DNA from: Alphaproteobacteria bacterium LSUCC0396
Lineage (GTDB): Bacteria; Pseudomonadota; Alphaproteobacteria; Puniceispirillales; Puniceispirillaceae
NCBI GenBank assembly: GCA_041228345.1
Contig: CP166131.1
Span: forward strand, 2,473,001-2,537,000
DNA: 64,000 nucleotides
Direction of reading: 5' to 3'
Shown: in pieces, positions 1,657 to 55,307 of the stretch
How positions within the stretch are numbered: the stretch's first letter is position 1
Layout of the letters: every line of letters begins with the position of its first letter
Translations under genes and position numbers: made by a program
The notes under the pieces: generated by a model
What the model saw: only the letters and a program-made list of their open reading frames with translations
Told to the model about the DNA's origin: nothing
The model's database searches: none

Positions 1657-2985
1657 CTATTGCGGCTCATTACTGCGGATATGGCGATAGCGGGTTGCCG
1701 CATCATGGCGAACATCGAGCGCACTGCGCGTCGTGGCAATGGCGTTGCTGGGAACATCGGCGGTGATGGTACTGCCCGCCCCAATGATAGCGCCGGCGCC
1801 AATGCTGACCGGTGCAACAAGTGCTGTGTTTGAACCAATCGAGGCACCATCACCGATCAGCGTTTTAAATTTTCCAAAGCCATCATAATTACAGGTAATC
1901 GTGCCGGCACCGATATTTGCGTTGGCACCAATTGTCGTGTCGCCGATATAGGTCAGATGATTTGCCTTACTGCCAGCCCCGATATTTACCTTTTTGGTTT
2001 CAACAAAATTACCGATTTTTACACCCTCATCAGCATTGGTGCCGGGACGCAGCCGCGCATAAGGCCCAATGATGCAGCAGGCACCCAACGTCGCGCCTTC
2101 GATATGCGAAAAGGATTTGATTATACTGCCCTCGCCAATGACGCTGCCAGCACCAATCACCACATGCGGCTCGATAATAACATCACGGCCAAAGCTGACA
2201 TCGGCGCTCAGGAACACGGTTTCAGGGGCGTGTAGGGTGACGCCCTGTTCCATAGCTGACGCACGCAGCCGTTTTTGTAAAATGGTCTCGATATGGGCAA
2301 GGTCTTGGCGGCTGTTGACGCCAGCAATTTCGGCCTCATCAGTGGTCCGAAAGGTCACGTTAAGCCCTTGCGCATTGGCATGATGAACGATGTCGGTAAG
2401 GTAAATCTCGCCTTTCGCATTATCCGGAATGACCTTCTCAAGAAGATCAAACAGCAGCGGACAGCGCACCGCCATAACGCCGCCATTCACCAGCGTGACA
2501 GCGCGTTCGGCCTCAGTCGCATCATTATGTTCGACAATCCGGTCAAGCCGATGATTATCTGTTGTTATCAGCCTGCCATAACCGGCCGGATCCGATGCCT
2601 CAAACCCAAGAACCGCAATATCGGCGCCATCAGTAATTGCCGCGGCGAGGCTTGACAGCGTTTGCGCTGTCACCAGCGGTGTGTCGGCAAACATGATTAA
2701 GGCAATGCCGGAAAAACCGTCTAGGGTGCCGCGGGCGGACAGAACAGCGTGACCGGTTCCCATTGGCGGGTCTTGGACACAGCTATCATGACCATCAAGC
2801 CATTTGATAATCGCGTCCGATCCTTTTGGCAGAACGGTGATAATTTGGGTTGCTGATGCCGCTTTGGCTGCGTCAAGAGACCAGGCCAGCATCGGTCTTC
2901 CACCGACTTGATGAAGCGGCTTTGGTAATGAGGAATTAAGGCGTGTGCCTTTTCCAGCAGCAAGAATGATAGCAGCAATTTCCAT
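1657..2985 (-). CDS. glmU: Bifunctional UDP-N-acetylglucosamine pyrophosphorylase / glucosamine-1-phosphate acetyltransferase GlmU
   Basis: Acetylates glucosamine 1-phosphate and uridylylates it to UDP-GlcNAc, the precursor of peptidoglycan and lipid A. The ATG at 2985 gives 442 residues beginning MEIAAIILAAGKGTRL. An in-frame upstream start at 3021 would add 12 poorly conserved residues and is less likely. The uridyltransferase domain covers about 5-230 (LAAGKGTRL at 8-16; GTGHA at 76-80). The left-handed beta-helix acetyltransferase covers about 252-442, with hexapeptide repeats and the NHLTYIGD (342-349) and CNYDG (365-369) active-site stretches. It is divergent from glmS, which makes the substrate precursor, and upstream of hldE. 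Confidence 0.96.
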   Translation of the reverse strand: MEIAAIILAAGKGTRLNSSLPKPLHQVGGRPMLAWSLDAAKAASATQIITVLPKGSDAIIKWLDGHDSCVQDPPMGTGHAVLSARGTLDGFSGIALIMFADTPLVTAQTLSSLAAAITDGADIAVLGFEASDPAGYGRLITTDNHRLDRIVEHNDATEAERAVTLVNGGVMAVRCPLLFDLLEKVIPDNAKGEIYLTDIVHHANAQGLNVTFRTTDEAEIAGVNSRQDLAHIETILQKRLRASAMEQGVTLHAPETVFLSADVSFGRDVIIEPHVVIGAGSVIGEGSIIKSFSHIEGATLGACCIIGPYARLRPGTNADEGVKIGNFVETKKVNIGAGSKANHLTYIGDTTIGANANIGAGTITCNYDGFGKFKTLIGDGASIGSNTALVAPVSIGAGAIIGAGSTITADVPSNAIATTRSALDVRHDAATRYRHIRSNEPQ

Positions 2986-3239
2986 GGCAAATTTATAATC
3001 GCAAATACCGGTTAATGCCAAACATTTGCGTTATCGCTGTCCGCTTTTCCGCTCAAAATCGGAGAAAACACAAAAAAAACCTGTTCCTGCCTTTCAATCC
3101 TGTCAAAATATATCTATCACAATGCGAGAAAAGATCAGATACTAGGCGGTGGTTAAAGCGGTTAACCTCGCAGCATTAACAGGCTGGCGTAACCCTGCGC
3201 CATTTATACCGACGGTGCGATAATGAAAGAGGCGATCTA

Positions 3240-5060
3240 ATGTGCGGAATTGTTGGCGCAGTTGGGCATAAACAATGTAGTGAGGTGCTTCTTGATGCGC
3301 TGAAACGTCTTGAATATCGCGGCTATGACAGTTCGGGCATCGTAACGATTAATGAGGGGGTGATCGCGCTAAAACGTGCGGTTGGCAAACTGGTAAATCT
3401 CGACAAGGCGCTGAGGGCATCGCCGCTGATGGGCGATGTCGGGATTGGTCACACGCGCTGGGCCACCCATGGCGGTGTTTCAACCGAAAATGCGCACCCG
3501 CATGTGGCCGCTGGCCGGGTTGCGATTGTGCATAATGGCATTATTGAAAATCATCGCACCATTCGCAGCCGCCTTGAAGCGGTAGGGTATAAATTTTCCA
3601 GCGATACAGATTCTGAAGTTCTGGCACATTTGTTTGTCGAGGCACTGGATGCCGGGCTTGATCCGGCGGCGGCAACGCGCCAAGTGCTTGCTGAAATTGA
3701 TGGTGCCTATGCGTTTGCAATGATGTCGATCGACCATCCTGATATGCTGATTGTGGCGCGAAATGCCTCGCCACTAGCTCTCGGGATTGGTGATACGGCG
3801 TGTTATGTCGGGTCTGATGCGATTGCGCTATCGCACCTGACGCGCAAAGTTGTTTATCTCAAAGACCATGATTATGCGCTGGTTCGTGCCGATGGCGTGT
3901 CAGTCTATCAGGCTGATGGGGTGCCGGTGAACCGCGAGGCAGTAATTGTCTCGGCAAGCCCGGGTCTGGTCGATAAGGGCGGCTATCGTCATTACATGGA
4001 AAAGGAAATCCATGAACAGCCTGACGCTATTGCCCATTCGCTGGCGGCAATGACGGATGAGTCTGGCAGGTTAACGGCACAGATGAGCGATGATGAGCTG
4101 CGGTCGATTGACGGCATCGTCATGGTTGCGGCTGGCACCAGCCATTACGCATCACAGATTGCCCGCTATTGGATTGAGTCGCTGGCCGGTGTGCCGGTGG
4201 CCTGCGAGGTGGCATCGGAATATCATTATCGCCAACCGGCAACAGCCCCTTTTGATACAGCGATTGCGATTTCCCAATCTGGTGAAAGCCTCGATACAAT
4301 GATGGCGATGCGCCACGCGGCCAAATCTGGGTTGAAAACCATCGGATTGGTGAATGTGCCAGACAGCACGATTGCGCGTGAAGCCGATGCGGTTTTACCG
4401 ACGCGGGCAGGGCCGGAAATTGGTGTTGCCAGCACCAAGGCCTTTACCGCGCAATTAACCGTTTTAATATGTTTTGCGGTGGCGCTAGCCCGGGCCAAGG
4501 GACAGATTGATACCGCCAGAGCTGAGGCTATTCACTCCGAAATTCAGGGTCTGCCCGGGCTGGTTGGCAAGGCGCTCGGACTGTTTGATTCGATCCGTCC
4601 GGTTGCACATCAGTTATCGCAGGCAAAATCGGCGTTGTATTTGGGGCGTGGCGCGCTGTATCCGCTGGCGCTTGAGGGGGCGTTAAAGCTGAAGGAGCTT
4701 AGCTATATTCACGCCGAGGGGTTTGCCTCTGGCGAGATGAAGCATGGCCCGATTGCGCTGATCGAAGACGGCTTGCCAGTCGTTGCGCTACTGGCGGCTG
4801 ATACGGTGATGACAAAGGCCAGCAGCAACCTTCACGAGGCCAGTGCACGCGGCGGCAAAATCATCCTTTTATCCGAGGCGCGGGCTGCCGATGAGGTGGA
4901 TTACGCCAGCGCAGTTGTGACTGTGCCAAGTGTTGACCCGCTATTGGCGCCAATCCTGCTGGCGATACCGGCACAGATTCTGGCCTATTTAACCGCGGTT
5001 GAAAAAGGCACTGATGTCGATCAACCACGCAATCTGGCAAAATCCGTGACAGTGGAATAG
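3240..5060 (+). CDS. glmS: Glutamine-fructose-6-phosphate aminotransferase (isomerizing) GlmS
   Basis: Converts fructose 6-phosphate and glutamine to glucosamine 6-phosphate, the first committed step to UDP-GlcNAc. The 606 residues are normal for the family. The N-terminal class II glutaminase domain begins MCGIVG, with Cys2 as nucleophile and HTRWATHG at 71-78. Two SIS sugar-isomerase domains follow, with GTSHYAS at 299-305 and SQSGES at 345-350, and the C-terminal tail carries the conserved PRNLAKSVTVE. AGAGG about 8 nt before the ATG is a workable ribosome-binding site. The gene is divergent from glmU across a gap of about 250 bp. I see no glmS ribozyme-like element upstream. Confidence 0.97.
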   Translation: MCGIVGAVGHKQCSEVLLDALKRLEYRGYDSSGIVTINEGVIALKRAVGKLVNLDKALRASPLMGDVGIGHTRWATHGGVSTENAHPHVAAGRVAIVHNGIIENHRTIRSRLEAVGYKFSSDTDSEVLAHLFVEALDAGLDPAAATRQVLAEIDGAYAFAMMSIDHPDMLIVARNASPLALGIGDTACYVGSDAIALSHLTRKVVYLKDHDYALVRADGVSVYQADGVPVNREAVIVSASPGLVDKGGYRHYMEKEIHEQPDAIAHSLAAMTDESGRLTAQMSDDELRSIDGIVMVAAGTSHYASQIARYWIESLAGVPVACEVASEYHYRQPATAPFDTAIAISQSGESLDTMMAMRHAAKSGLKTIGLVNVPDSTIAREADAVLPTRAGPEIGVASTKAFTAQLTVLICFAVALARAKGQIDTARAEAIHSEIQGLPGLVGKALGLFDSIRPVAHQLSQAKSALYLGRGALYPLALEGALKLKELSYIHAEGFASGEMKHGPIALIEDGLPVVALLAADTVMTKASSNLHEASARGGKIILLSEARAADEVDYASAVVTVPSVDPLLAPILLAIPAQILAYLTAVEKGTDVDQPRNLAKSVTVE

Positions 5061-5244: not shown

Positions 5245-5796
5245 ATGAGCGCATACGATACGATGCCAAACGACCTGCCGAGACCCGTTGATGATGGTGC
5301 TTGCGACCATTTGATCGGCACTAAACTTCCAAATATTGATTTAGTCGCAACTGATGGAAGCATTGTGAACTTGTCCGCGCAATCCAGAAAGACTGTTATT
5401 TATTGCTATCCCATGACCGGAAAACCCGGCGTTCCGTTGCCAGACGGTTGGGATGAAATCCCCGGTGCTCGTGGTTGCACGCCGCAGAGCTGTTCATTCA
5501 GAGACCACCATGCTGAATTATCCGCTTTGGGTGCCGATGTTTTTGGCTTGAGCACACAGAATACCGAATATCAGCAAGAGATGGCGGAACGGCTTCACCT
5601 ACCATTTTTGGTTCTAAGCGACGCCAATTTTAAGTTCTGTGAAGCGATGACACTTCCAACTTTTGAGGTTAACGGTGTGCGCTTGTTGAAAAGAGTTACA
5701 ATGATTGCTGATAATAATGAAGTGGTTAGCGTCCATTATCCTGTGTTTCCAAGTGATGGAGACGCCGCATGGGTGATTGAGCAGCTGTCGTATTGA
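5245..5796 (+). CDS. Peroxiredoxin of the AhpC/TSA (BCP/PrxQ-like) type
   Basis: A 183-residue thioredoxin-fold peroxidase, probably reducing peroxides in the cytoplasm. The residues around 53-90 read YCYPMTGKPG, then a loop, then GARGCTPQSCSFRD. This matches the bacterioferritin-comigratory/PrxQ pattern with the peroxidatic Cys at 78 and a candidate resolving Cys at 83. The loop between the PMTGKPG strand and the Cys motif is longer than in classical BCP. It stands alone, with glmS upstream on the same strand and a GNAT gene convergent downstream. The start is ATG at 5245; another Met at residue 7 is possible. The reductant is not evident from context. Confidence 0.8.
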   Translation: MSAYDTMPNDLPRPVDDGACDHLIGTKLPNIDLVATDGSIVNLSAQSRKTVIYCYPMTGKPGVPLPDGWDEIPGARGCTPQSCSFRDHHAELSALGADVFGLSTQNTEYQQEMAERLHLPFLVLSDANFKFCEAMTLPTFEVNGVRLLKRVTMIADNNEVVSVHYPVFPSDGDAAWVIEQLSY

Positions 5797-13128: not shown

Positions 13129-14115
13129 ATGCCGTCTGATCACACTTTAACACGAATTCTTGTTATCAAGCATGGTGCGCTTGGCGACATTGTTCAGGCG
13201 CTTGATAGTTTTGCTAGTCTGCGTGCGGGCAACCCTGATGCCCATATTGCGCTCATGACGACCCCCGGTTTCGTTTCTTTTGCCGCGATGATGCCGTGGT
13301 TTGATGAGGTGATTGCCGACCCGCGCGCTGGCATTTTTAACCTTGCCGCGTCATGGCGTATTCGCCGCGCCCTTCGCCAAGACTGGTCGATTATGGTTGA
13401 TATGCAGTGCAGTGGTCGAACCAAACGCTATTTTACCCATTTCGTGATGCCTGCAACACGCTGGATTGGCACGGCGCCCGGCTGTTCGGATCGGCTGCCC
13501 GATTTTACGGGCGTCAATAACCGTGACCGTATGATGAAAACTGCGGAAATTGCCGGCGGTATTGCCAAAAATGCTGATATGGATTGGCTTATGGGTGATG
13601 CGGCAAGTGCCGGCACGCCATTATTGTTTACGCCATCGTTTGCCGATTGCGAGTTTCCCCACGCTGGTCGCTATGCCGTTCTTGTACCGGGTTGCTCGTT
13701 GGCAAAGCCGCAAAAGCGCTGGCCTGCGGAACGGTTTGCTGAACTTGCAAATGCGTTACTTGCCCGCAATCTAGCGGTTCTGCTGGTCGGCACAGATGAT
13801 GATCGTACTGCGGTTGATGCGGTGCTGGCGGTGGCGGCAGATGCGGTTGATCTATGCGGAAAAACCAATCTGGTCACGCTGGCGCAATTATTAAGCGGCG
13901 CTGCATTCGTTATCGGTAATGATACAGGCCCGATGTTCCTTGCAGCGAAAACCGGCGCGCCGAGCCTGATGTTGATGGGGCCAGATACCGATCCATCAAT
14001 GTCGGCCCCAACCGGCCGCACCGCAACCTGGCTGCAAGCAAGCCCGATTGCCCATATTACCGCCAAAGCCGCACTTGATGCGCTTGAAAAGCTGGGTCTT
14101 GAACCGGCCGCTTAA
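13129..14115 (+). CDS. Glycosyltransferase family 9 (heptosyltransferase-like)
   Basis: 328 residues with the GT9 layout: the N-terminal ILVIKHGALGDIVQALDSFA strand-loop, a central PGCSLAKPQKRWPAERFAEL segment typical of ADP-heptose transferases, and the C-terminal FVIGNDTGPMFLAAKTGAPS donor site. It probably adds heptose or a related sugar to LPS, consistent with hldE, GT4 and lptD in the same window. Its stop codon overlaps that of the convergent DUF924 gene by four bases (TTAA, 14112-14115). Whether it is WaaC, WaaF or another GT9 cannot be decided. Confidence 0.88.
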   Translation: MPSDHTLTRILVIKHGALGDIVQALDSFASLRAGNPDAHIALMTTPGFVSFAAMMPWFDEVIADPRAGIFNLAASWRIRRALRQDWSIMVDMQCSGRTKRYFTHFVMPATRWIGTAPGCSDRLPDFTGVNNRDRMMKTAEIAGGIAKNADMDWLMGDAASAGTPLLFTPSFADCEFPHAGRYAVLVPGCSLAKPQKRWPAERFAELANALLARNLAVLLVGTDDDRTAVDAVLAVAADAVDLCGKTNLVTLAQLLSGAAFVIGNDTGPMFLAAKTGAPSLMLMGPDTDPSMSAPTGRTATWLQASPIAHITAKAALDALEKLGLEPAA

Positions 14116-14663
14116 AAGGATGAGCCGGGCTGGCTTAAAAACATCTCTTCCTCGGCGCTGCTTGGCCGGCCAAGCCATGCGTTGCGATGCGGAAATCGCC
14201 CGAACCGGGCAATGATATCGCGATGTTTAAGCGCATAATCATGGGTCATTTTTGACGTATAACCCTCAAATAACGGTAATGATGCGTCTTGAATGCCGAT
14301 ATCCTCGCTATGCATCATTGGCATAAGCATGAATTGGCACCGTACCGCCTGACCCGGCTCAAGATATTGCCGTTCAACACAACGTAGACTTAGCGCAAGC
14401 GCCATTTCATCGCCGGAAAATGCGCGCGCAGAATTGCGAAAGATATTCCGGGTAAATTGGTCAAGCAGCAGGATCAAGGCAAGACAACCATCGGCGTCAT
14501 TTGCCCAATGATCGAGACGCCCAGCAAGCGCCTCTCGCACCGCTTTGCCAAACCTGCTCTCAAGCAGGGCGTCAAAATCATCGTCTTTTTTAAACCAGAA
14601 TTCGGGCGAAGTTTCGACAAACCAGAAATGCAAAATGTCCTGCGGCGTTGGTGTCTTGGGCAT
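14112..14663 (-). CDS. DUF924 family protein
   Basis: 183 residues matching the DUF924 pattern: DILHFWFVETSPEFWFKKDD at the N terminus, LALILLLDQFTRNIFRNSAR in the middle, then LMPMMHSEDIGIQ and RFPHRNAWLGR toward the end. The family is a soluble helical protein resembling a TPR-like fold and has no agreed function. It converges on and overlaps the GT9 gene by four bases, and the D-2-hydroxyacid dehydrogenase gene ends 33 nt upstream on the same strand, so those two may be cotranscribed. Confidence 0.85.
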   Translation of the reverse strand: MPKTPTPQDILHFWFVETSPEFWFKKDDDFDALLESRFGKAVREALAGRLDHWANDADGCLALILLLDQFTRNIFRNSARAFSGDEMALALSLRCVERQYLEPGQAVRCQFMLMPMMHSEDIGIQDASLPLFEGYTSKMTHDYALKHRDIIARFGRFPHRNAWLGRPSSAEEEMFLSQPGSSF

Positions 14664-50708: not shown

Positions 50709-50932
50709 TAATTAACCAGCAACCGGTTTCGGTTAATGGCCCGCCGCTTGGCCCAATTGATCCTTGATTGACAGGATTGCAGGTTTTTGAAAGGCTAGTT
50801 GCGCTGGCTTTGCCATGGGGTGCGTTGCTGCGGGTGCGTAAAATAGGGGCAAGGCAAGCAGGTTATTGATCGTTAATGGTGATAAGTAATTGATATGGTT
50901 ACCAGCTAGGTCAATCTTGGGAGGAGGCTGTA

Positions 50933-51799
50933 ATACTCGAAAATGCTGAAATCGTGCCATTGACTGGGGCGCTTGGCGCTGAGGTTAATGATGTGCAACT
51001 TGCCGATCTTGTAAAGCGTAATGACCGCAGCAATGCTGATGCGCTTGGTCGAATGCTGGTGAAGAATAAGGTGCTGGTGTTTCGTGATCAGCACCCTGAC
51101 CCTCAAACGCATGTCGAAGTTGCAAAATTGCTGGGTGAATTAGCGCCGGCCGTGCCGATGTATCCAAAGGTGGCTGGATTTGAGGATATTATTATTATCC
51201 GCAATGATGATGATAATCCGCCCGAAAATGAGGTTTGGCACGCAGATATGACCTATCGCGAGGTGCCAATTTTTGCTGCCGTACTGCATGGGGTTCATGT
51301 TCCCCCTGTTGGTGGTGACACTCTATGGGTTGATATGGTCGCGGTCGCCAAGGGCCTGTCAGAGCCAATGCGCCAGTTCCTGCGAGGGCTGACATCGCGC
51401 CACACGATCGAAAAAGGCTTTTCGTTTGTTACCGAGAACGGACAGGATGATCGCGCTGCCGAGCTGGCTAAAACCATAGGTAAACATAACCGAACCAATC
51501 ACCCCGTTATGCGTGTTCATCCGGTAACGGGCGAGGAAACATTATTTGTCAACGCGGCCTTTACCGAAGCGATAAATGAGCTGACCGCCGCCGAGTCTGA
51601 TGCGATGCTTCGCCATCTCTATAGTCATATTGATAATCCGCGCTATCAGATGCGGGTGAAATGGCGTCCGGGAACGGTTGTTATGTGGGATAATTGGGCA
51701 ACGCAGCATTTTGCCTGCGGGGATCATTATCCGTCATTCCGCGAAGTACAGCGGGTGACGGTAAGGGCGCCGCACCATGAGAGCTTTGCCGCAAACTAG
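50933..51799 (+). CDS. TauD/TfdA family Fe(II)/2-oxoglutarate dioxygenase (start uncertain)
   Basis: An alpha-ketoglutarate-dependent hydroxylase, perhaps acting on a sulfonate, ester or similar substrate. The iron ligands are clear: VWHADMTYREVP (H-x-D) and the distal His in NWATQHFACGDHY, with the 2-oxoglutarate Arg near REVQRVTVR. GTHx-type stretches such as PVTGEETLFVNAAFTEAINE are present. From the first conventional start (GTG, 50954) the protein has 281 residues but begins at PLTGALGAEV, losing the usual I-x-P lead-in. GGGAGGAGG at about 50919-50927 points to an ATA codon at 50933 that would restore it. I give 50933 as the more likely start, with low certainty. The substrate is unknown. 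Confidence 0.72.
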   Translation: MLENAEIVPLTGALGAEVNDVQLADLVKRNDRSNADALGRMLVKNKVLVFRDQHPDPQTHVEVAKLLGELAPAVPMYPKVAGFEDIIIIRNDDDNPPENEVWHADMTYREVPIFAAVLHGVHVPPVGGDTLWVDMVAVAKGLSEPMRQFLRGLTSRHTIEKGFSFVTENGQDDRAAELAKTIGKHNRTNHPVMRVHPVTGEETLFVNAAFTEAINELTAAESDAMLRHLYSHIDNPRYQMRVKWRPGTVVMWDNWATQHFACGDHYPSFREVQRVTVRAPHHESFAAN

Positions 51800-51809
51800 A
51801 TACCGGCGG

Positions 51810-51830
51810 GACGTGATCACCGGTCACGTC
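51810..51830 (+). terminator. Candidate hairpin after the TauD-type gene
   Basis: GACGTGA (51810-51816) pairs perfectly with TCACGTC (51824-51830) around a 7-base loop, 11 bp past the stop codon. No U tract follows, so function as a terminator is only possible. Confidence 0.3.
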
Positions 51831-51918
51831 TGACATTAATATACGGATGTCTAGGGTTCTATAACATACTGATATTACTTGAGGTCAGTAGTGACTGGTG
51901 CTTGGGGGATGCGTCTTT

Positions 51919-52018
51919 GTCTCCCCGCCCGCACCATTCGCTGTAACACTTTATGTGTAACTGATTGAAATGCTTCACTTCATGTGTCTGCATGATGATT
52001 GGTGTGCAACAGAATGAG
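51919..52018 (+). repeat. Left 100-bp inverted repeat of the island (tRNA-Leu 3' end plus integrase leader)
   Basis: This is the reverse complement of 54427-54526, matching at 97 of 100 positions. Reading on plus it starts with 18 bases identical to the tRNA-Leu(UAA) 3' end including CCA. It continues through the 82 bases that lie between the tRNA and the integrase, and ends in the integrase start codon and the next two bases (ATGAG). Here no tRNA 5' half and no integrase follow. Confidence 0.9.
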
Positions 52019-52041
52019 TTTCCTCCTTGGAAAGAAATTCA

Positions 52042-52079
52042 ACACAAGGAACAACAAAAAACACAAGGAACAACAAAAA
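52042..52079. repeat. 19-bp perfect tandem duplication inside the island
   Basis: ACACAAGGAACAACAAAAA occurs twice in tandem (52042-52060 and 52061-52079), 23 bp inside the left inverted repeat. It could be a binding site array for an excisionase or regulator, or a simple slippage product. Confidence 0.75.
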
Positions 52080-52146
52080 ACGATGTCGAAAAGTATATAT
52101 ATTTAATGTTAGCGCTTTGTGATCAACATTGCTCTAAAAATATGTG

Positions 52147-52446
52147 ATGTATGAAATAATCAGAATCATTGCTAGTTCACAACTCAAGATATTCCTATCA
52201 AATGGATATTCTTTAGAGCTTCTATTTTTTTTGGCACGTAATGATGGTCGTTACTCAATATCAGAAACCTATGCTTTACTTGCATCGCCTAAACCTCAAA
52301 AACCTTCTTTTGACAAATTCATTCAACGCTTGTTGGCGGCCAATTTTATTCATACAACAACGGGCCCTGACAAAAGAAAAAAATCCTTGTCTTTGTCAGA
52401 CGAAACAAAAGCATGCATGGCAACACTAAAGATTAATTCCTTTTAA
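52147..52446 (+). CDS. Winged-helix (MarR-like) small protein
   Basis: 99 residues from the ATG at 52147 (a GTG at 52144 is also in frame). It has a winged-helix look: a leading helix SLELLFFLARNDGRYSISET, a recognition-helix region KPSFDKFIQRLLAANFIHTT, and a wing with RKKSLSLSDETKACMAT. It fits small MarR-type regulators without the flanking dimerisation helices. AT-rich codons differ from the flanking genes. It is the first gene of the island trio. No clear Shine-Dalgarno sequence is seen. DNA binding is inferred, not shown. Confidence 0.55.
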   Translation: MYEIIRIIASSQLKIFLSNGYSLELLFFLARNDGRYSISETYALLASPKPQKPSFDKFIQRLLAANFIHTTTGPDKRKKSLSLSDETKACMATLKINSF

Positions 52447-52482
52447 ACTAACATTTAAATTGTAACCTTGGATCTAAGAAAC

Positions 52483-53070
52483 ATGAATTTGATACGCAGC
52501 CTTTCTCAACACTGGATTGGCATTTCGATGCTTGCTTATATTTTTGCACTTATAATCCAGCAGCACCTTATATTTCCGTTGGAAATTAGGCTCACGAGTG
52601 AGAATGCTGCTCTTGCTAGCTTTCTTTTCTTCCCTCATGCAGTGCGTGTCTTGAGTGCATGGTTGCTCGGACCAAAGTCGCTGATAGCTATGGTTCCAGT
52701 CGCTATTGGACTCTCCTTGATAAGCGATACAATGCCTCACACAGAGTATGAATTTCTTGCGCATACTATAATGCCCACTTTTTCAGCTTGCTCTGCAGTA
52801 ATGGCATTTGAATTCATGCGGTTTTGCAAGATAGATGCTTATCCAAAAGATATTGGTGTAATCAGCTGGCGAACTGTCCTGTTTGGGGGGGTGTTTGCCT
52901 CAATTATAAACTCATTAGGCTCTTCTTGGTTAAAGTCTGGTCTTTTTGCACCAAGTGAATTAATGGAAGTAATTATCAGGTTTATTGTTGGTGACACTTT
53001 AGGTCTGTTGTTTGGTATGCTAGTTATTATGTTAATATTTAGACAACTTCGACAAATTGCGCAGGCCTAA
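52483..53070 (+). CDS. Island multipass membrane protein, family not recognised
   Basis: 195 residues from the ATG at 52483 (TTG at 52468 is an alternative). It has five to six hydrophobic segments: about 10-32, 42-64, 66-84, 90-112, 128-150 and 160-187. The loop FFPHAVRVLSAWLLGPKS after helix 2 looks conserved and may be the functional part; it recalls, without matching, the sensory MASE domains. AT-rich codons mark it as acquired. It stands between two small winged-helix genes in the same direction (36 nt after the first, 11 nt before the second), suggesting one transcript. Function unknown. Confidence 0.6.
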   Translation: MNLIRSLSQHWIGISMLAYIFALIIQQHLIFPLEIRLTSENAALASFLFFPHAVRVLSAWLLGPKSLIAMVPVAIGLSLISDTMPHTEYEFLAHTIMPTFSACSAVMAFEFMRFCKIDAYPKDIGVISWRTVLFGGVFASIINSLGSSWLKSGLFAPSELMEVIIRFIVGDTLGLLFGMLVIMLIFRQLRQIAQA

Positions 53071-53081
53071 GGGGGAAACCG

Positions 53082-53366
53082 ATGTCAAATCGCAAAGTGT
53101 TTGCAGACCTCTTAAAGGTCACACAATCAATGGAAACAGATTTAGGTTTGAGTGCGCTGACACAAACTGACAAGCAAGTTCTTGCTTCTGTAGTTTTGAT
53201 AACTGAAGATGGCAAAAGAGATGCCTTACTTGATGATATCAGGACCCATAGCTTGGTCGATACAATACCAACGCCTTCTTTATATAGGTCACTTAAAACC
53301 CTCATTCAAAAAGGCTTGGTTCAGAAGGTTGGCTCCGAAAGGTCGGGGATTTATCGTCTGGCTTAA
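53082..53366 (+). CDS. Winged-helix small protein
   Basis: 94 residues beginning MSNRKVFADLLKVTQSMETD. It has a compact winged helix: LTQTDKQVLASVVLITEDGK, then TPSLYRSLKTLIQKGLVQKV (recognition helix) and the wing GSERSGIYRLA. AGGGGGAAACCG precedes the ATG, 11 nt after the membrane protein gene. It is probably a DNA-binding regulator tied to the membrane protein. It ends four bases before the decayed integrase remnant on the other strand. Confidence 0.6.
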   Translation: MSNRKVFADLLKVTQSMETDLGLSALTQTDKQVLASVVLITEDGKRDALLDDIRTHSLVDTIPTPSLYRSLKTLIQKGLVQKVGSERSGIYRLA

Positions 53367-53370
53367 ATAG

Positions 53371-54431
53371 CTAGTGTGTTATCCGTTTCATCCACTTCTC
53401 CAAGACATTCAATGGATACCCATTCCCATATCCATGCCCTATGCCAGATGTCTTCCAGCCTCCTATGGCATCCACGATGTCACTAGGACACTCTACTGCT
53501 CTTAACCTATCTCTGAGGCTATGCCTGAAGCTATGTATGACACAGTTATCAGGCACATATTGATGCAGCCACTTGTTCAATCCACCACTAGCTGAGTTAG
53601 CTTTGCAGCTTCTTTCATCGCAGTATCGTGGAAAGGCAAAGATACTATCATTATTGGCATCTAAAAGGCGTTTAGAAGCCCAAAGAGCTTCTTTAGTAAG
53701 AGGTATGAGTCTTTGGCTGCCTTTAGTCTTAAGACTCCTCCACGGATGTGGTTTGAGGTCTATATGAGGAATAGGTTCATCAAGTTTGATATCCTCTTTC
53801 AATAGACCAGCTGCTTCACCCAATCTCATGCCAGTGTCACTGATAAGAGCAATAAGCCATCGCATCTCATCGTCTATGTCTTTGCAAAGGCATTAGAACA
53901 ATCAAATCCTTCTTCTGAGATAGCTAGATTTATAATGGCTCTAACAGAGGCAAAGACACGCTTAACTGTCTTAATACCCATGCCTTGCCCAATGCACCAA
54001 TCACGGAACTGAGCAGCTTCATTGGATGAATATGAGGATATGGGTCTATCGCCAAGCAACTTAGTTACATAGCCAGTATTACGATTGGCTGTTCTTATGA
54101 ACACCTTGTCCTTACCCACGCCTTTCAGCCGAAGGTATAACTCACAGGCTTCTGATAGACGTAAAGTATCATTTACATGGGTATCACTTGATTTGACCAC
54201 TTGAATGGCTGGTATATCCATGTTCTGAAGCCTTAAACCCAGCCATTAGTCCTCAAGGCGTTGGTTTATGGACTTGCTTGCACGAACAGCAGCAGAGGCT
54301 GATTTCGTCTTTAGACTGAAACACAGCCTTTTAACATTATAGTAGGAGGTTAAGTCGTAAGGCACACGCCTCACATAATAGTAAACACCATCACGATAAA
54401 GCAAGTGATTCGCTTCACATTTGTTTCTCAT
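53371..54431 (-). pseudogene. Tyrosine-recombinase integrase, inactivated by a nonsense codon and a frameshift
   Basis: A site-specific integrase reading away from tRNA-Leu, now in three pieces. Piece 1 (54431-54246) begins MRNKCEANHLLYRDGVYYYV, an N-terminal arm-binding type region, and ends at an in-frame TAA (54248-54246). Piece 2 (54221-53874) continues the same frame with the core-binding domain (KTVKRVFASVRAIINLAISE). Piece 3 (53865-53371) is shifted by one and has the catalytic domain: Arg in TGMRLGEAAGL, Lys in SLKTKGSQRLIPL, HxxR-type HSFRHSLRDRLR, then GGWKTSG and the Tyr in YGNGYPL. The frames rejoin as NAFAK-DIDDEMRWL if one A is restored in GCAAAGAC near 53885. The island is likely stranded unless sequence errors explain both breaks. 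Confidence 0.88.
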
Positions 54432-54526
54432 TCTGTTGCACACCAATCATCATGCAGACACATGAAGTGAGTCATTTCAATCAGTTACACATAAAGTGTT
54501 ACAGAGAATGGTGCGGGCGGGGAGAC
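54427..54526 (-). repeat. Right 100-bp inverted repeat of the island
   Basis: The partner of 51919-52018, three mismatches in 100. It contains the last 18 bases of tRNA-Leu(UAA) including CCA, the 77-bp leader between tRNA and integrase, and the integrase start ATGAG. Because it is inverted relative to its partner, recombination between the two would flip the 2408 bp between them and not excise them. Confidence 0.9.
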
Positions 54527-54593
54527 TCGAACTCCCACGGCCTAAGGCCCACGGATTTTAAGTCCGTTATGTCTACCATTCCATCACGCCCGC
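54509..54593 (-). tRNA. tRNA-Leu (anticodon UAA)
   Basis: An 85-nt class II tRNA with encoded CCA. The acceptor GCGGGCG (54593-54587) pairs with CGCCCGC (54519-54513), followed by A and CCA (54512-54509). The anticodon stem ACGGA/TCCGT encloses loop CTTAAAA with anticodon TAA (54560-54558). A long variable arm (GGGCCTTAGGCC) and the T arm GGGAG-TTCGAGT-CTCCC are present. Its 3' end is the integration target of the island and remains intact. Confidence 0.97.
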
Positions 54594-54683
54594 GTGGCTG
54601 GTACGTATCAGGTGATAGCCCAGCTAATCCGATGATGCAAAAGGAAAGCTTGCTTTAGTGGCAAAAAAAATACTGTTTCTGAT

Positions 54684-55307
54684 CTAGGTATGAAATGGCG
54701 GCGTTGTGGTAATCGCGCGCAAAAAGCTGGCGGCTGATGACCGCGCCGAAAACAGCCAGAAACAGGGCGCACCATCATCAGTGTCGGGGCGGCGCGTAAT
54801 GATTACACCAAGATGTTCCATCATTGTTCGGGCGGTGGTGCCAATCGGCATCGCAGCCGCGCTGCAATCAATTGGACAAATTCTCTCGAGAATCTGGCGT
54901 GCCTCTATCCCGCTTAGCGCCAAGACAGCCCATGAGTCCGATTGATCAGTCATTGCAAGATGGGGTTTCGTATTTTTACCCAATAAACCAATCGCCGCGT
55001 CTAGCGGATCGCTTTGATTATCGTCAAACACCAAAAACCACTGATTATGCGCGCTTGGCATGATGAAACAGCGGCCCTTGCCAGTTCGCTCGAGCGCCAT
55101 TGTTGCCGAGGGTGTGCCGGCGTTAAACAGCTTGGCAATGGCAGATTTAAAACTGGTCTCACCGCCCATAAGCGGGGCAACTGACACGATTGAAAGGTCG
55201 GTAATTTCGATGAGGCTGACGCCATCGGTAATGGCATGATGTCCCCCAAGCGGGCTTTGTGCCGTCAGGGAAAATGACGAATTGACTGCCGGATCAGACT
55301 TAGCCAT
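54684..55307 (-). CDS. soxG: Sarcosine oxidase gamma subunit
   Basis: A small subunit of heterotetrameric sarcosine oxidase. The ATG at 55307 gives 207 residues beginning MAKSDPAVNSSFSLTAQSPL; the longer ORF to 55448 would lie deep in soxA. The fold resembles part of the GcvT/SoxG group: GRCFIMPSAHNQWFLVFDD and DQSDSWAVLALSGIEARQIL. It overlaps the soxA stop by eight bases, so it is translationally coupled. It is last in the soxBDAG order. Confidence 0.9.
   Translation of the reverse strand: MAKSDPAVNSSFSLTAQSPLGGHHAITDGVSLIEITDLSIVSVAPLMGGETSFKSAIAKLFNAGTPSATMALERTGKGRCFIMPSAHNQWFLVFDDNQSDPLDAAIGLLGKNTKPHLAMTDQSDSWAVLALSGIEARQILERICPIDCSAAAMPIGTTARTMMEHLGVIITRRPDTDDGAPCFWLFSARSSAASFLRAITTTPPFHT

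What the first reader, a model, noticed from the sequence alone, without database searches (positions are those of the whole stretch)
51919..54526. Small island at tRNA-Leu bounded by 100-bp inverted copies of the tRNA 3' end and integrase leader
The sequence shows two 100-bp repeats in opposite orientation, 97/100 identical. Each contains the last 18 bases of tRNA-Leu(UAA) plus the leader up to the integrase start codon. Tyrosine-recombinase islands normally leave direct att repeats so that they can excise. An inverted pair would instead lead to inversion of the 2408-bp interior by integrase or RecA. It may therefore be an invertible cassette, or the scar of two head-to-head insertions. The visibly lower GC between the repeats supports acquisition.
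Basis: partly seen in the sequence, partly recalled or inferred. Interest (0 to 1): 0.75.

Follow-up and report, generated by a model that had tools for sequence, protein, structure and literature searches.

The report
Integrase gene between inverted attachment sites
The inverted repeat beside this tRNA gene is not a one-off scar: it is the worn copy of a recurring design in which a mobile element carries its chromosome-docking site twice, in opposite directions, around its integrase gene, so that the gene could be flipped as well as moved.

Summary
In detail: 51919-52018 and 54427-54526 are 97/100 inverted repeats, each the last 18 nt of tRNA-Leu(UAA) plus the integrase leader. It is not a chance scar. 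The same genome has such elements at tRNA-Arg, tRNA-Phe and tRNA-Thr. Of 109 loci of one DUF6538 tyrosine-recombinase clade, 80 carry an inverted copy downstream of the integrase; 0 of 40 P4-type integrases do. An ordinary direct attR was also found in 7 of 36 tRNA-flanked loci with the inverted copy and in Ruegeria TM1040. In five of six such elements, and in TM1040, the inverted copy is followed by a duplicate of the attR arm (188-1148 bp, 95-100%). So at least these elements have attL, a direct attR and an inverted attR-like site. attL x inverted site would flip the integrase module; 49 loci have the integrase beside the tRNA, one (a MAG) has it flipped, 30 could not be assigned. I infer integrase-driven inversion with a strongly favoured ground state; this is not proven. 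The window's copy has a broken integrase, no convincing direct attR, and a left end that looks like a hybrid made inside the 18-nt site.

The parts
54509..54593 (-). tRNA-Leu(UAA), integration target; its last 18 nt (54509-54526) are the attachment core t
54427..54526 (-). right arm (attL side): t plus integrase leader L, ending two bases past the integrase ATG
   Evidence: sequence
51919..52018 (+). left arm: inverted copy of t and leader (t' 51919-51936, L' 51937-52018), 97/100
51843..51887 (+). 45-bp box outside t', 96% identical to the box of the tRNA-Arg element of the same genome; part of outer arm B'
51800..51918 (+). outer arm region B' between TauD stop and t'; identical over 119 nt in a same-species genome, where a different leader follows t'
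53371..54446 (-). integrase pseudogene (DUF6538 / SAM-like / Phage_integrase) in three ORFs 54246-54446, 53874-54221, 53371-53865
53082..53366 (+). cargo: winged-helix protein (94 aa), weak TrmB/HTH similarity below the curated cut-offs
52468..53070 (+). cargo: predicted membrane protein (200 aa, judged by eye), no Pfam family above its cut-off; 64% identical to the one in the tRNA-Arg element
52144..52446 (+). cargo: small ORF (100 aa) behind L', no family found
50954..51799 (+). TauD-family dioxygenase; taken as chromosomal neighbour, not cargo (follows the nucleosidase gene in a relative too)

Best explanation
The island is a decayed member of a family of tRNA-targeting integrative elements whose tyrosine recombinase (a DUF6538 clade) is enclosed by two inverted copies of its own attachment region. 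SHOWN by sequence, in the relatives where both ends were found: the order is tRNA-t-L-P-int(-cargo)-L'-t'-B'-(more cargo)-B-t, where t is usually 14-18 nt of the tRNA 3' end, L the leader, P a pair of arm-type repeats at the integrase start, and B an outer arm, with like repeats starting 99-129 bp from t in 35 of 56 loci. So there are attL (t-L-P), an ordinary direct attR (B-t) and a second attR-like site (B'-t'-L') in inverted orientation. INFERRED: attL x direct attR excises the element; attL x inverted site flips the integrase module, leaving an attB-like site at the tRNA and an attP inside. Flipping and unflipping would then follow the directionality of excision and integration, so integrase alone would hold the usual state (integrase next to the tRNA) and the flipped state would be rare and depend on an excision factor. 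In the window the integrase is broken, the direct attR is missing or unrecognisable, and the left junction looks like a hybrid formed at t'.
For: Recurrence: inverted copy in 80 of 109 loci, 52 of 68 with at least 1.5 kb downstream, against 0 of 40 P4-type integrases, 0 of 37 with that much sequence (Fisher p 6e-16, nominal because loci are related) and 0 of 18 distant DUF6538 integrases, 9 of them behind a tRNA. The arm holds 13-18 nt of the tRNA 3' end in 41 of 49 tRNA-flanked loci, over 17 tRNA kinds. Direct copy of 14-21 nt in seven loci that also have the inverted one (L068, L107, L113, L118, L129, own L039; L242). B' matches B before the direct copy at 95-100% over 188-317 bp in five of six elements; Ruegeria TM1040: 85 bp plus 1148 bp at 100%, with a duplicated BRO gene. 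Paired repeats shared by P and B' in 35 of 56 loci against 1 of 56 in a window farther out. Flipped module L111 against HIMB30 L113 at homologous tRNA-Phe loci. Trait on both sides of the midpoint root of the integrase tree. L and L' more alike within elements than between sisters in 14 of 20 chosen pairs. Hybrid left junction at t' in the window.
Against: The flip is seen once, in a MAG contig where a 98-bp inverted repeat invites misassembly; 49 loci are unflipped, 30 inverted-repeat loci could not be assigned. A direct copy was found in only 7 of 36 tRNA-flanked inverted-copy loci with at least 1.5 kb downstream (two of the 36 repeat loci of the other set); loci with about 9-10 kb downstream and none include L084, L090, L115, L127, L130, L239, L241, L243 and L244. 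29 of 109 loci show no inverted copy (16 of them with at least 1.5 kb downstream). L118 has no B' match beyond t, and in L107 B and B' differ next to t. In 3 of the 35 loci with a P match (L077, L089, own L039) the inverted copy covers the matched P stretch, so the internal site could be a full attP there. E1 itself shows no P-B' match (score 5) and no good direct attR. Integrase activity, an excision factor and a circle were not shown. A crossover inside t does not explain why L and L' stay alike.
Confidence: 0.55

Rival explanations
1. The inverted copy is not used for inversion. It is a duplicated leader that gives the inward-facing cargo genes the same promoter and translation signals as int, and gene conversion keeps the copies alike; t' is a hitch-hiker.
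For: In several elements L' lies before an inward-facing gene (window ORF 52144; a DUF1330-like gene in L040, read by eye; the membrane gene in L005). Concerted evolution. 49:1 orientation bias.
Against: In L068, L072, L073, L081, L108 and L129 the inverted copy begins 6-12 bp after the end of the integrase match, and in TM1040 one base after the stop codon, so there is no gene for L' to drive. The copy includes t' and, where checked, B' up to 1148 bp, far beyond a leader.
Confidence: 0.22
2. Passive structure: inverted duplications left by earlier tandem or opposite insertions, inverted now and then by RecA, with no role for the integrase (includes the first reader's two head-to-head insertions).
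For: Tandem arrays with several modules exist (own L039, L037; G002 C22). RecA could act on repeats of 1.2 kb.
Against: The same arrangement, starting 13-18 nt inside the tRNA in 41 of 49 loci, recurs in 80 of 109 loci over 17 tRNA kinds and with diverged leaders; 0 of 40 integrases of another clade show it, 17 of them behind a tRNA with at least 1.5 kb held; the trait spans the clade's tree.
Confidence: 0.12
3. The inverted copies let single-stranded element DNA fold so that t pairs with t', giving a double-stranded attachment core, as in CTXphi.
For: L-t and L'-t' are near-perfect complements (median 98% over a median of 85.5 nt), which a stem would require. [quoted passage not shown]
Against: The loop between the arms is at least the integrase gene (about 1.2 kb), and in 32 of the 35 loci with a P match that site lies partly or wholly outside the stem. 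No single-stranded stage is known; no relative was found among 50,697 phage records at E 1e-30 or by one pattern scan of viral contigs. Direct attR and arm-type sites fit double-stranded integration.
Confidence: 0.05
4. Assembly or amplification artefact (MDA inversion chimeras, collapsed repeats).
For: Many loci are single-cell genomes or MAGs; eight contigs end inside an arm (L058, L059, L062, L067, L087, L099, L106, L114).
Against: Present in genomes held as one contig: the window's own, G019, G025, in a complete Ruegeria TM1040 replicon and in records whose titles name a strain and no MAG (HIMB30, BAL199, IMCC1909, Pseudooceanicola HF7).
Confidence: 0.02

Closest known systems
Ordinary tRNA-targeting tyrosine-recombinase genomic islands (P4-like, DUF4102 integrases)
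   Same: Integrase beside the tRNA, tRNA 3' end as core, direct attR at the far end in some relatives, arm-type repeats
   Different: A second, inverted att region encloses the integrase; 0 of 40 P4-type loci have it
Yeast 2-micron plasmid FLP/FRT (recalled; PMC3212892 passages mention FLP of the plasmid only)
   Same: Predicted circle has two inverted repeats holding the recombinase's own site, dividing it into two unique parts, one with the recombinase gene (TM1040: int ORF alone)
   Different: Integrates at tRNA genes with direct attR; unrelated recombinase lineage (recalled); replication or amplification not shown
CTXphi attP (PMC4439123, passages)
   Same: Complementary att arms within one element (that CTXphi has two inverted sites is recalled)
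   Different: CTXphi uses host XerC/D at dif and a hairpin of single-stranded DNA; here the element has its own integrase and the arms are about 1.2 kb or more apart
Strand-biased circularizing integrative elements and Tn554 (PMC10214605, passages)
   Same: Tyrosine-recombinase integrative elements; their end motifs form imperfect inverted repeats
   Different: SEs carry intA and intB and a 6-bp spacer, and 'tRNA' does not occur in that paper's text; here there is one integrase at a tRNA and long inverted att regions
Tycheposons (original paper not held; seen only through PMC10872708, passages)
   Same: Tyrosine recombinase at a tRNA gene in aquatic streamlined bacteria, variable cargo
   Different: No inverted att architecture mentioned in the passages seen; membership not tested

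Membership tests
tRNA-targeting tyrosine-recombinase integrative element | Tyrosine recombinase gene next to a tRNA 3' end | tested here: met
   broken gene in the window, intact relatives in the same genome
tRNA-targeting tyrosine-recombinase integrative element | Direct copy of the tRNA 3' end at the far end | tested here: inconclusive
   Absent in the window at up to 3 mismatches, possibly decayed; present in 9 of 45 tRNA-flanked relatives with at least 1.5 kb downstream, 7 of them with the inverted copy, and in TM1040
tRNA-targeting tyrosine-recombinase integrative element | Excision as a circle | not testable with these tools
   needs DNA or reads
Inverted-att DUF6538 integrase clade described here | Integrase at least about 44% identical to the A1 set | tested here: met
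   window pieces 85-90% identical to the intact integrase at 554 kb of the same genome
Inverted-att DUF6538 integrase clade described here | Inverted copy of t plus leader downstream of int | tested here: met
   80 of 109 loci
Inverted-att DUF6538 integrase clade described here | Typical, not used as defining (35 of 56 members): paired repeats in B' matching P | tested here: not met
   E1 score 5; its B' resembles the tRNA-Arg element instead
2-micron / FLP-type inverting circle | Two long inverted repeats holding the recombinase site, dividing a circle | tested here: inconclusive
   Inferred for the excised TM1040 element; circle not observed
2-micron / FLP-type inverting circle | Recombinase-driven inversion and copy-number amplification | not testable with these tools
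   one flipped MAG contig only
CTXphi-like single-stranded attP | Site formed by a hairpin of single-stranded DNA and used by host XerC/D | tested here: not met
   own integrase beside the site, arms separated by at least the integrase gene
Tycheposon | Recombinase type and module set as defined by its authors | not tested
   defining paper not held

The most novel reading that the evidence does not exclude
These are bacterial integrative elements that work like the yeast 2-micron plasmid: after excision the circle carries two long inverted repeats (about 1.2 kb, 100% identical in TM1040) that hold the integrase's own site and split it into an integrase half and a cargo half. Integrase inversion during replication would turn bidirectional replication into double rolling-circle amplification, and in the chromosome the same sites flip the integrase module or exchange cassettes between strains.
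Probability: 0.2. Interest if true: 0.9.

Novelty: new variant of a known kind. Interest (0 to 1): 0.76.

Why it matters
Integrases at tRNA genes are taken to work with two direct att sites. A clade with a third, inverted site would add a second reaction (inversion, cassette exchange, perhaps amplification) to one enzyme. It could explain the tandem mosaics and cargo turnover seen in these marine genomes, and it would give integrase directionality a visible readout in genome data. Ruegeria sp. TM1040 (complete record here; that it is a cultured laboratory strain is recalled) makes the idea directly testable.

Tried and rejected
Chance: rejected. TauD as cargo: rejected, because TauD follows the nucleosidase gene in G003 too and remains as fragments there in G004, G007 and G010, with no tRNA in the stretches fetched. 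Direct attR of E1: only a weak match next to the TauD stop, judged by eye; not claimed. Decayed direct att of the tRNA-Arg element (GCGCGC.ATTT at the outer end of B'): plausible by eye, not counted. tRNA-Leu(UAA) loci without room for an integrase: two relatives (L207, L208), but with a different left neighbour, so the attB of E1 could not be drawn base by base. Rfam on 50800-55000: only the tRNA and one sub-threshold hit; nothing for the 45-bp box. Relatives in viral contigs (none by one pattern scan) and phage records (none at E 1e-30). The trait is not general for DUF6538: 0 of 18 distant members among 20 chosen from the listed matches. The ten literature searches returned no paper that I recognised as describing an integrase enclosed by inverted att regions; I judged this from listings (one search listed 25 of 41) and from passages of five papers, and the tycheposon paper is not held. 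No structure prediction was run.

Limits of the counts. The 80 GTDB loci are the best 80 of 158 hits, not a random sample, and include near-copies (e.g. L083-L090, L107/L108). Three loci that occurred in both sets (L248, L253, L257) were dropped before the count but are still in the counts; one of them (L248) is still in the 56, where its twin L100 is counted too. A looser first test (E 0.01) gave 61 of 80, the stricter one 55 of 80. In one search a locus whose best inverted hit exceeds 150 nt was not counted as state A (by these include L074 and L088). For GTDB loci 'after the integrase' is measured from the end of the tblastn match, not the stop codon. E1 and the Leu(GAG) copy were left out of the tree. 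The direct-att score of the controls (0 of 17) says little, because P4-type islands may exceed the 9 kb fetched.
Full report
WHAT WAS CLAIMED AND WHETHER IT IS THERE. The two arms are real: 51919-52018 and 54427-54526, 97% complementary over 100 nt, 2408 nt apart. tRNA-Leu(UAA) lies at 54509-54593 on the minus strand. Its last 18 nt begin the right arm and recur exactly, inverted, at 51919-51936; these are the only two matches in 64 kb at up to 3 mismatches, with 0.04 expected by chance. The rest of each arm is the integrase leader, ending two bases beyond the integrase ATG. The island (GC 0.36-0.45) is AT-richer than the near flanks (0.49-0.56), though GC falls to 0.45-0.47 again at 48.0-49.5 kb. 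The integrase (DUF6538, SAM-like and Phage_integrase domains, the middle one below its cut-off) is broken into three ORFs (stops counted). Cargo inside the arms: a 100-aa ORF, a 200-aa predicted membrane protein (my reading of the sequence) and a 94-aa winged-helix protein.

A SECOND COPY IN THE SAME GENOME. Searching the window's own genome (one contig, 2.59 Mb) with the left end found a 45-bp box outside the left arm at 96% identity elsewhere. There, at tRNA-Arg(ACG), lies a related element with an intact 383-aa integrase, the same membrane and winged-helix genes, and its own inverted arms: 81 nt, 98%, beginning with 14 nt of that tRNA. Its leader is a different sequence, so the inverted arrangement, not the sequence, is what is shared. 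Further integrases of the family in this genome show the same at tRNA-Phe and tRNA-Thr and at sites without a recognised tRNA; of nine examined, the one at tRNA-Leu(GAG) does not, and the one at tRNA-Gly only weakly (82%, 57 nt).

HOW GENERAL IT IS. One uniform test asked for an inverted copy of the integrase leader downstream (blastn minus strand, E at most 1e-8). It is met in 55 of 80, 17 of 20 and 8 of 9 (own genome), and in 0 of 40 P4-type DUF4102 integrases treated alike, 17 of which lie behind a tRNA with at least 1.5 kb of downstream sequence. After dropping three loci present in both sets and adding three more (TM1040, L361, L363) the count is 80 of 109, or 52 of 68 with at least 1.5 kb of downstream sequence. 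Against 0 of 37 controls of that length, Fisher p is 6e-16; relatedness makes that figure nominal. Of 20 chosen integrases found by the DUF6538 domain alone, the 18 that are distant from the family do not show it and the two with 44-49% identity do. In a tree of 102 integrases the trait lies on both sides of the midpoint root and the 15 rows without it are scattered; I read this as ancestral, with loss or decay.

ANATOMY. In 49 loci with an intact tRNA behind the first arm, the arm holds 13-18 nt of the tRNA 3' end in 41; the other values are 1, 21, 22, 23 and 27. A direct far copy starting at about the same point was found in 9 of 45 tRNA-flanked loci with at least 1.5 kb downstream. Seven of the nine also have the inverted copy: L068, L107, L113, L118, L129, own L039 and L242. 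That is 7 of 36 tRNA-flanked inverted-copy loci; in the other 29 the far end may lie beyond the stretch held, or be decayed, or be absent. In five of the six elements compared, the sequence beyond t' is a copy of the sequence before the direct one: 317, 188, 248, 316 and 197 bp at 95-100%. In L107 the stretch next to t has diverged, and L118 matches only in t. A separate scan found a second outer-arm copy downstream in 13 loci at E at most 1e-10, one of them only 30 bp. Paired direct repeats of 8-9 bp, as expected of arm-type integrase sites (general knowledge), occur at the integrase start (P) and again starting 99-129 bp outside t'. 35 of 56 loci reach score 11 there, against 1 of 56 in a window farther out. 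Of those 35, my reading of the list is that the inverted copy ends before P in 16, inside P in 16 and beyond the matched stretch in 3 (L077, L089, own L039) (L248 and L100 are the same record). So in the fully seen cases an integrated element has attL (tRNA-t-L-P), a direct attR (B-t) and an attR-like site in inverted orientation (L'-t'-B'), mostly without a complete P.

THE CLEANEST EXAMPLE. On the 821,788-bp megaplasmid of Ruegeria sp. TM1040 (the one hit in 72,556 plasmid records at E 1e-40; regions), tRNA-Phe is followed by a family integrase. Positions here are in the reverse complement of locus L379: 85 bp (1631-1715) return inverted at 2889-2973, one base after the stop codon, at 100%. 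From t' outward, 1148 bp (2957-4104) recur inverted at 13253-14400 at 100%, so that t is again present in direct orientation at the far end. A BRO gene with the same protein accession sits in both copies, and genes of a type I restriction-modification system lie between them. In the inferred circle, two inverted units of about 1.2 kb would enclose the integrase ORF on one side and 9 kb of cargo on the other.

DOES IT FLIP? Forty-nine loci have the integrase next to the tRNA. One, L111 (a gammaproteobacterial MAG contig), has the tRNA-Phe body beyond the second arm and B beyond the first. The other 30 inverted-copy loci could not be assigned (cut contigs, tandem sites, truncated or unrecognised tRNAs). 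Against HIMB30 (L113), the integrase of L111 aligns at 89% over 1178 bp, its B-t-L block aligns inverted at 97% over 207 bp, and the chromosome with the tRNA aligns inverted at 87% over 471 bp. That is a flip at a homologous locus, though an assembler can invert a segment between 98-bp repeats. The bias has a ready explanation from integrase directionality (general knowledge of lambda-type systems, inference here): attL x inverted attR is an excisive reaction needing an excision factor, and its product pair (attB-like plus attP) is what integrase alone converts back.

WHAT HAPPENED IN THE WINDOW. A same-species genome (G052) has the identical 119-nt B' and a t' differing by one base, but then a different leader, which matches the tRNA-Arg element of the window's genome (91-96% over 47-55 nt), followed by other cargo. 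The window's leader matches another set (L070, L071, L080, L102, L132), while its B' matched only G052 and the tRNA-Arg element among the loci searched. The two ancestries meet at the 18-nt t'. I infer recombination at t', by deletion between like-oriented t' sites or by cassette exchange, and hence that t' is or was an active site. Caution: G052 is a 260-contig assembly whose tRNA-Leu contig shows an odd deletion. TauD is taken as ancestral chromosome: it follows the nucleosidase gene in G003 and, as fragments, in G004, G007 and G010. Two relatives (L207, L208) have tRNA-Leu(UAA) between the nucleosidase gene and the sarcosine-oxidase genes with about 0.8-0.9 kb between nucleosidase and tRNA, which a SOUL-like gene (judged by eye) largely fills.

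WHY THE COPIES STAY ALIKE. In 20 chosen sister pairs, L and L' of one element are 97% alike on average, the same segments of sister elements 89%; both within-element values exceed both between-element values in 14 of 20. A crossover inside t does not copy L onto L', so homologous recombination or gene conversion, or re-duplication at each move, must also act. This is the least explained part.

CARGO. Some elements carry replication-like genes: L129 has a protein matching phage DNA primase and origin-binding families (E 1e-21 and 1e-15), L068 a weak DNA-polymerase match (E 4e-4). That leaves room for the 2-micron-like amplification reading, which is untested.

KNOWN OR NEW. The literature searches gave no description that I recognised (listings, plus passages of five papers). 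The original tycheposon paper is not held. I file the family as a new variant of tRNA-targeting integrative elements, and the window's island as a decayed member.

Noticed in passing
window 52041-52078: 19-bp unit AACACAAGGAACAACAAAA repeated twice head to tail just inside the left arm.
   Followed up: no
window 52468-53366; L042 9393-10218; L044-L054: The membrane-protein and winged-helix gene pair also occurs in this genome and in relatives at places where the integrase search found no family integrase (L052 has one about 5.5 kb away), so the cargo may come from, or feed into, a chromosomal gene pair.
   Followed up: partly
L037 (own genome 540-558 kb): Several family integrases close together; one intact element (O_37a) has a 398-bp inverted outer-arm pair around two EamA-like transporter genes (transporter identity judged by eye).
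   Followed up: partly
L006 around 5705-5795 (own genome 1645704): Leader-like sequence (72% to the window's leader) with no integrase-length ORF listed within 1.5 kb: possibly a further decayed copy.
   Followed up: no
L238 (G019) and L250 (G002): Family integrases with a direct repeat close behind and no inverted copy: 41 bp at +1936 and 18 bp at +75; possible loss variants or minimal elements.
   Followed up: no
L096 and L097: Two contigs share several staggered, overlapping 80-95% matches downstream of the integrase, suggesting a tandem repeat array.
   Followed up: no
L199 (G052 contig C3): tRNA-Leu(UAA) contig of a same-species genome lacks t and part of the leader; possibly an assembly fault at the inverted repeat.
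   Followed up: partly
L040 6817-7106; L107 13071-13361: DUF1330 gene as cargo in more than one element (L107; the L040 copy read by eye; DNA match between them).
   Followed up: no
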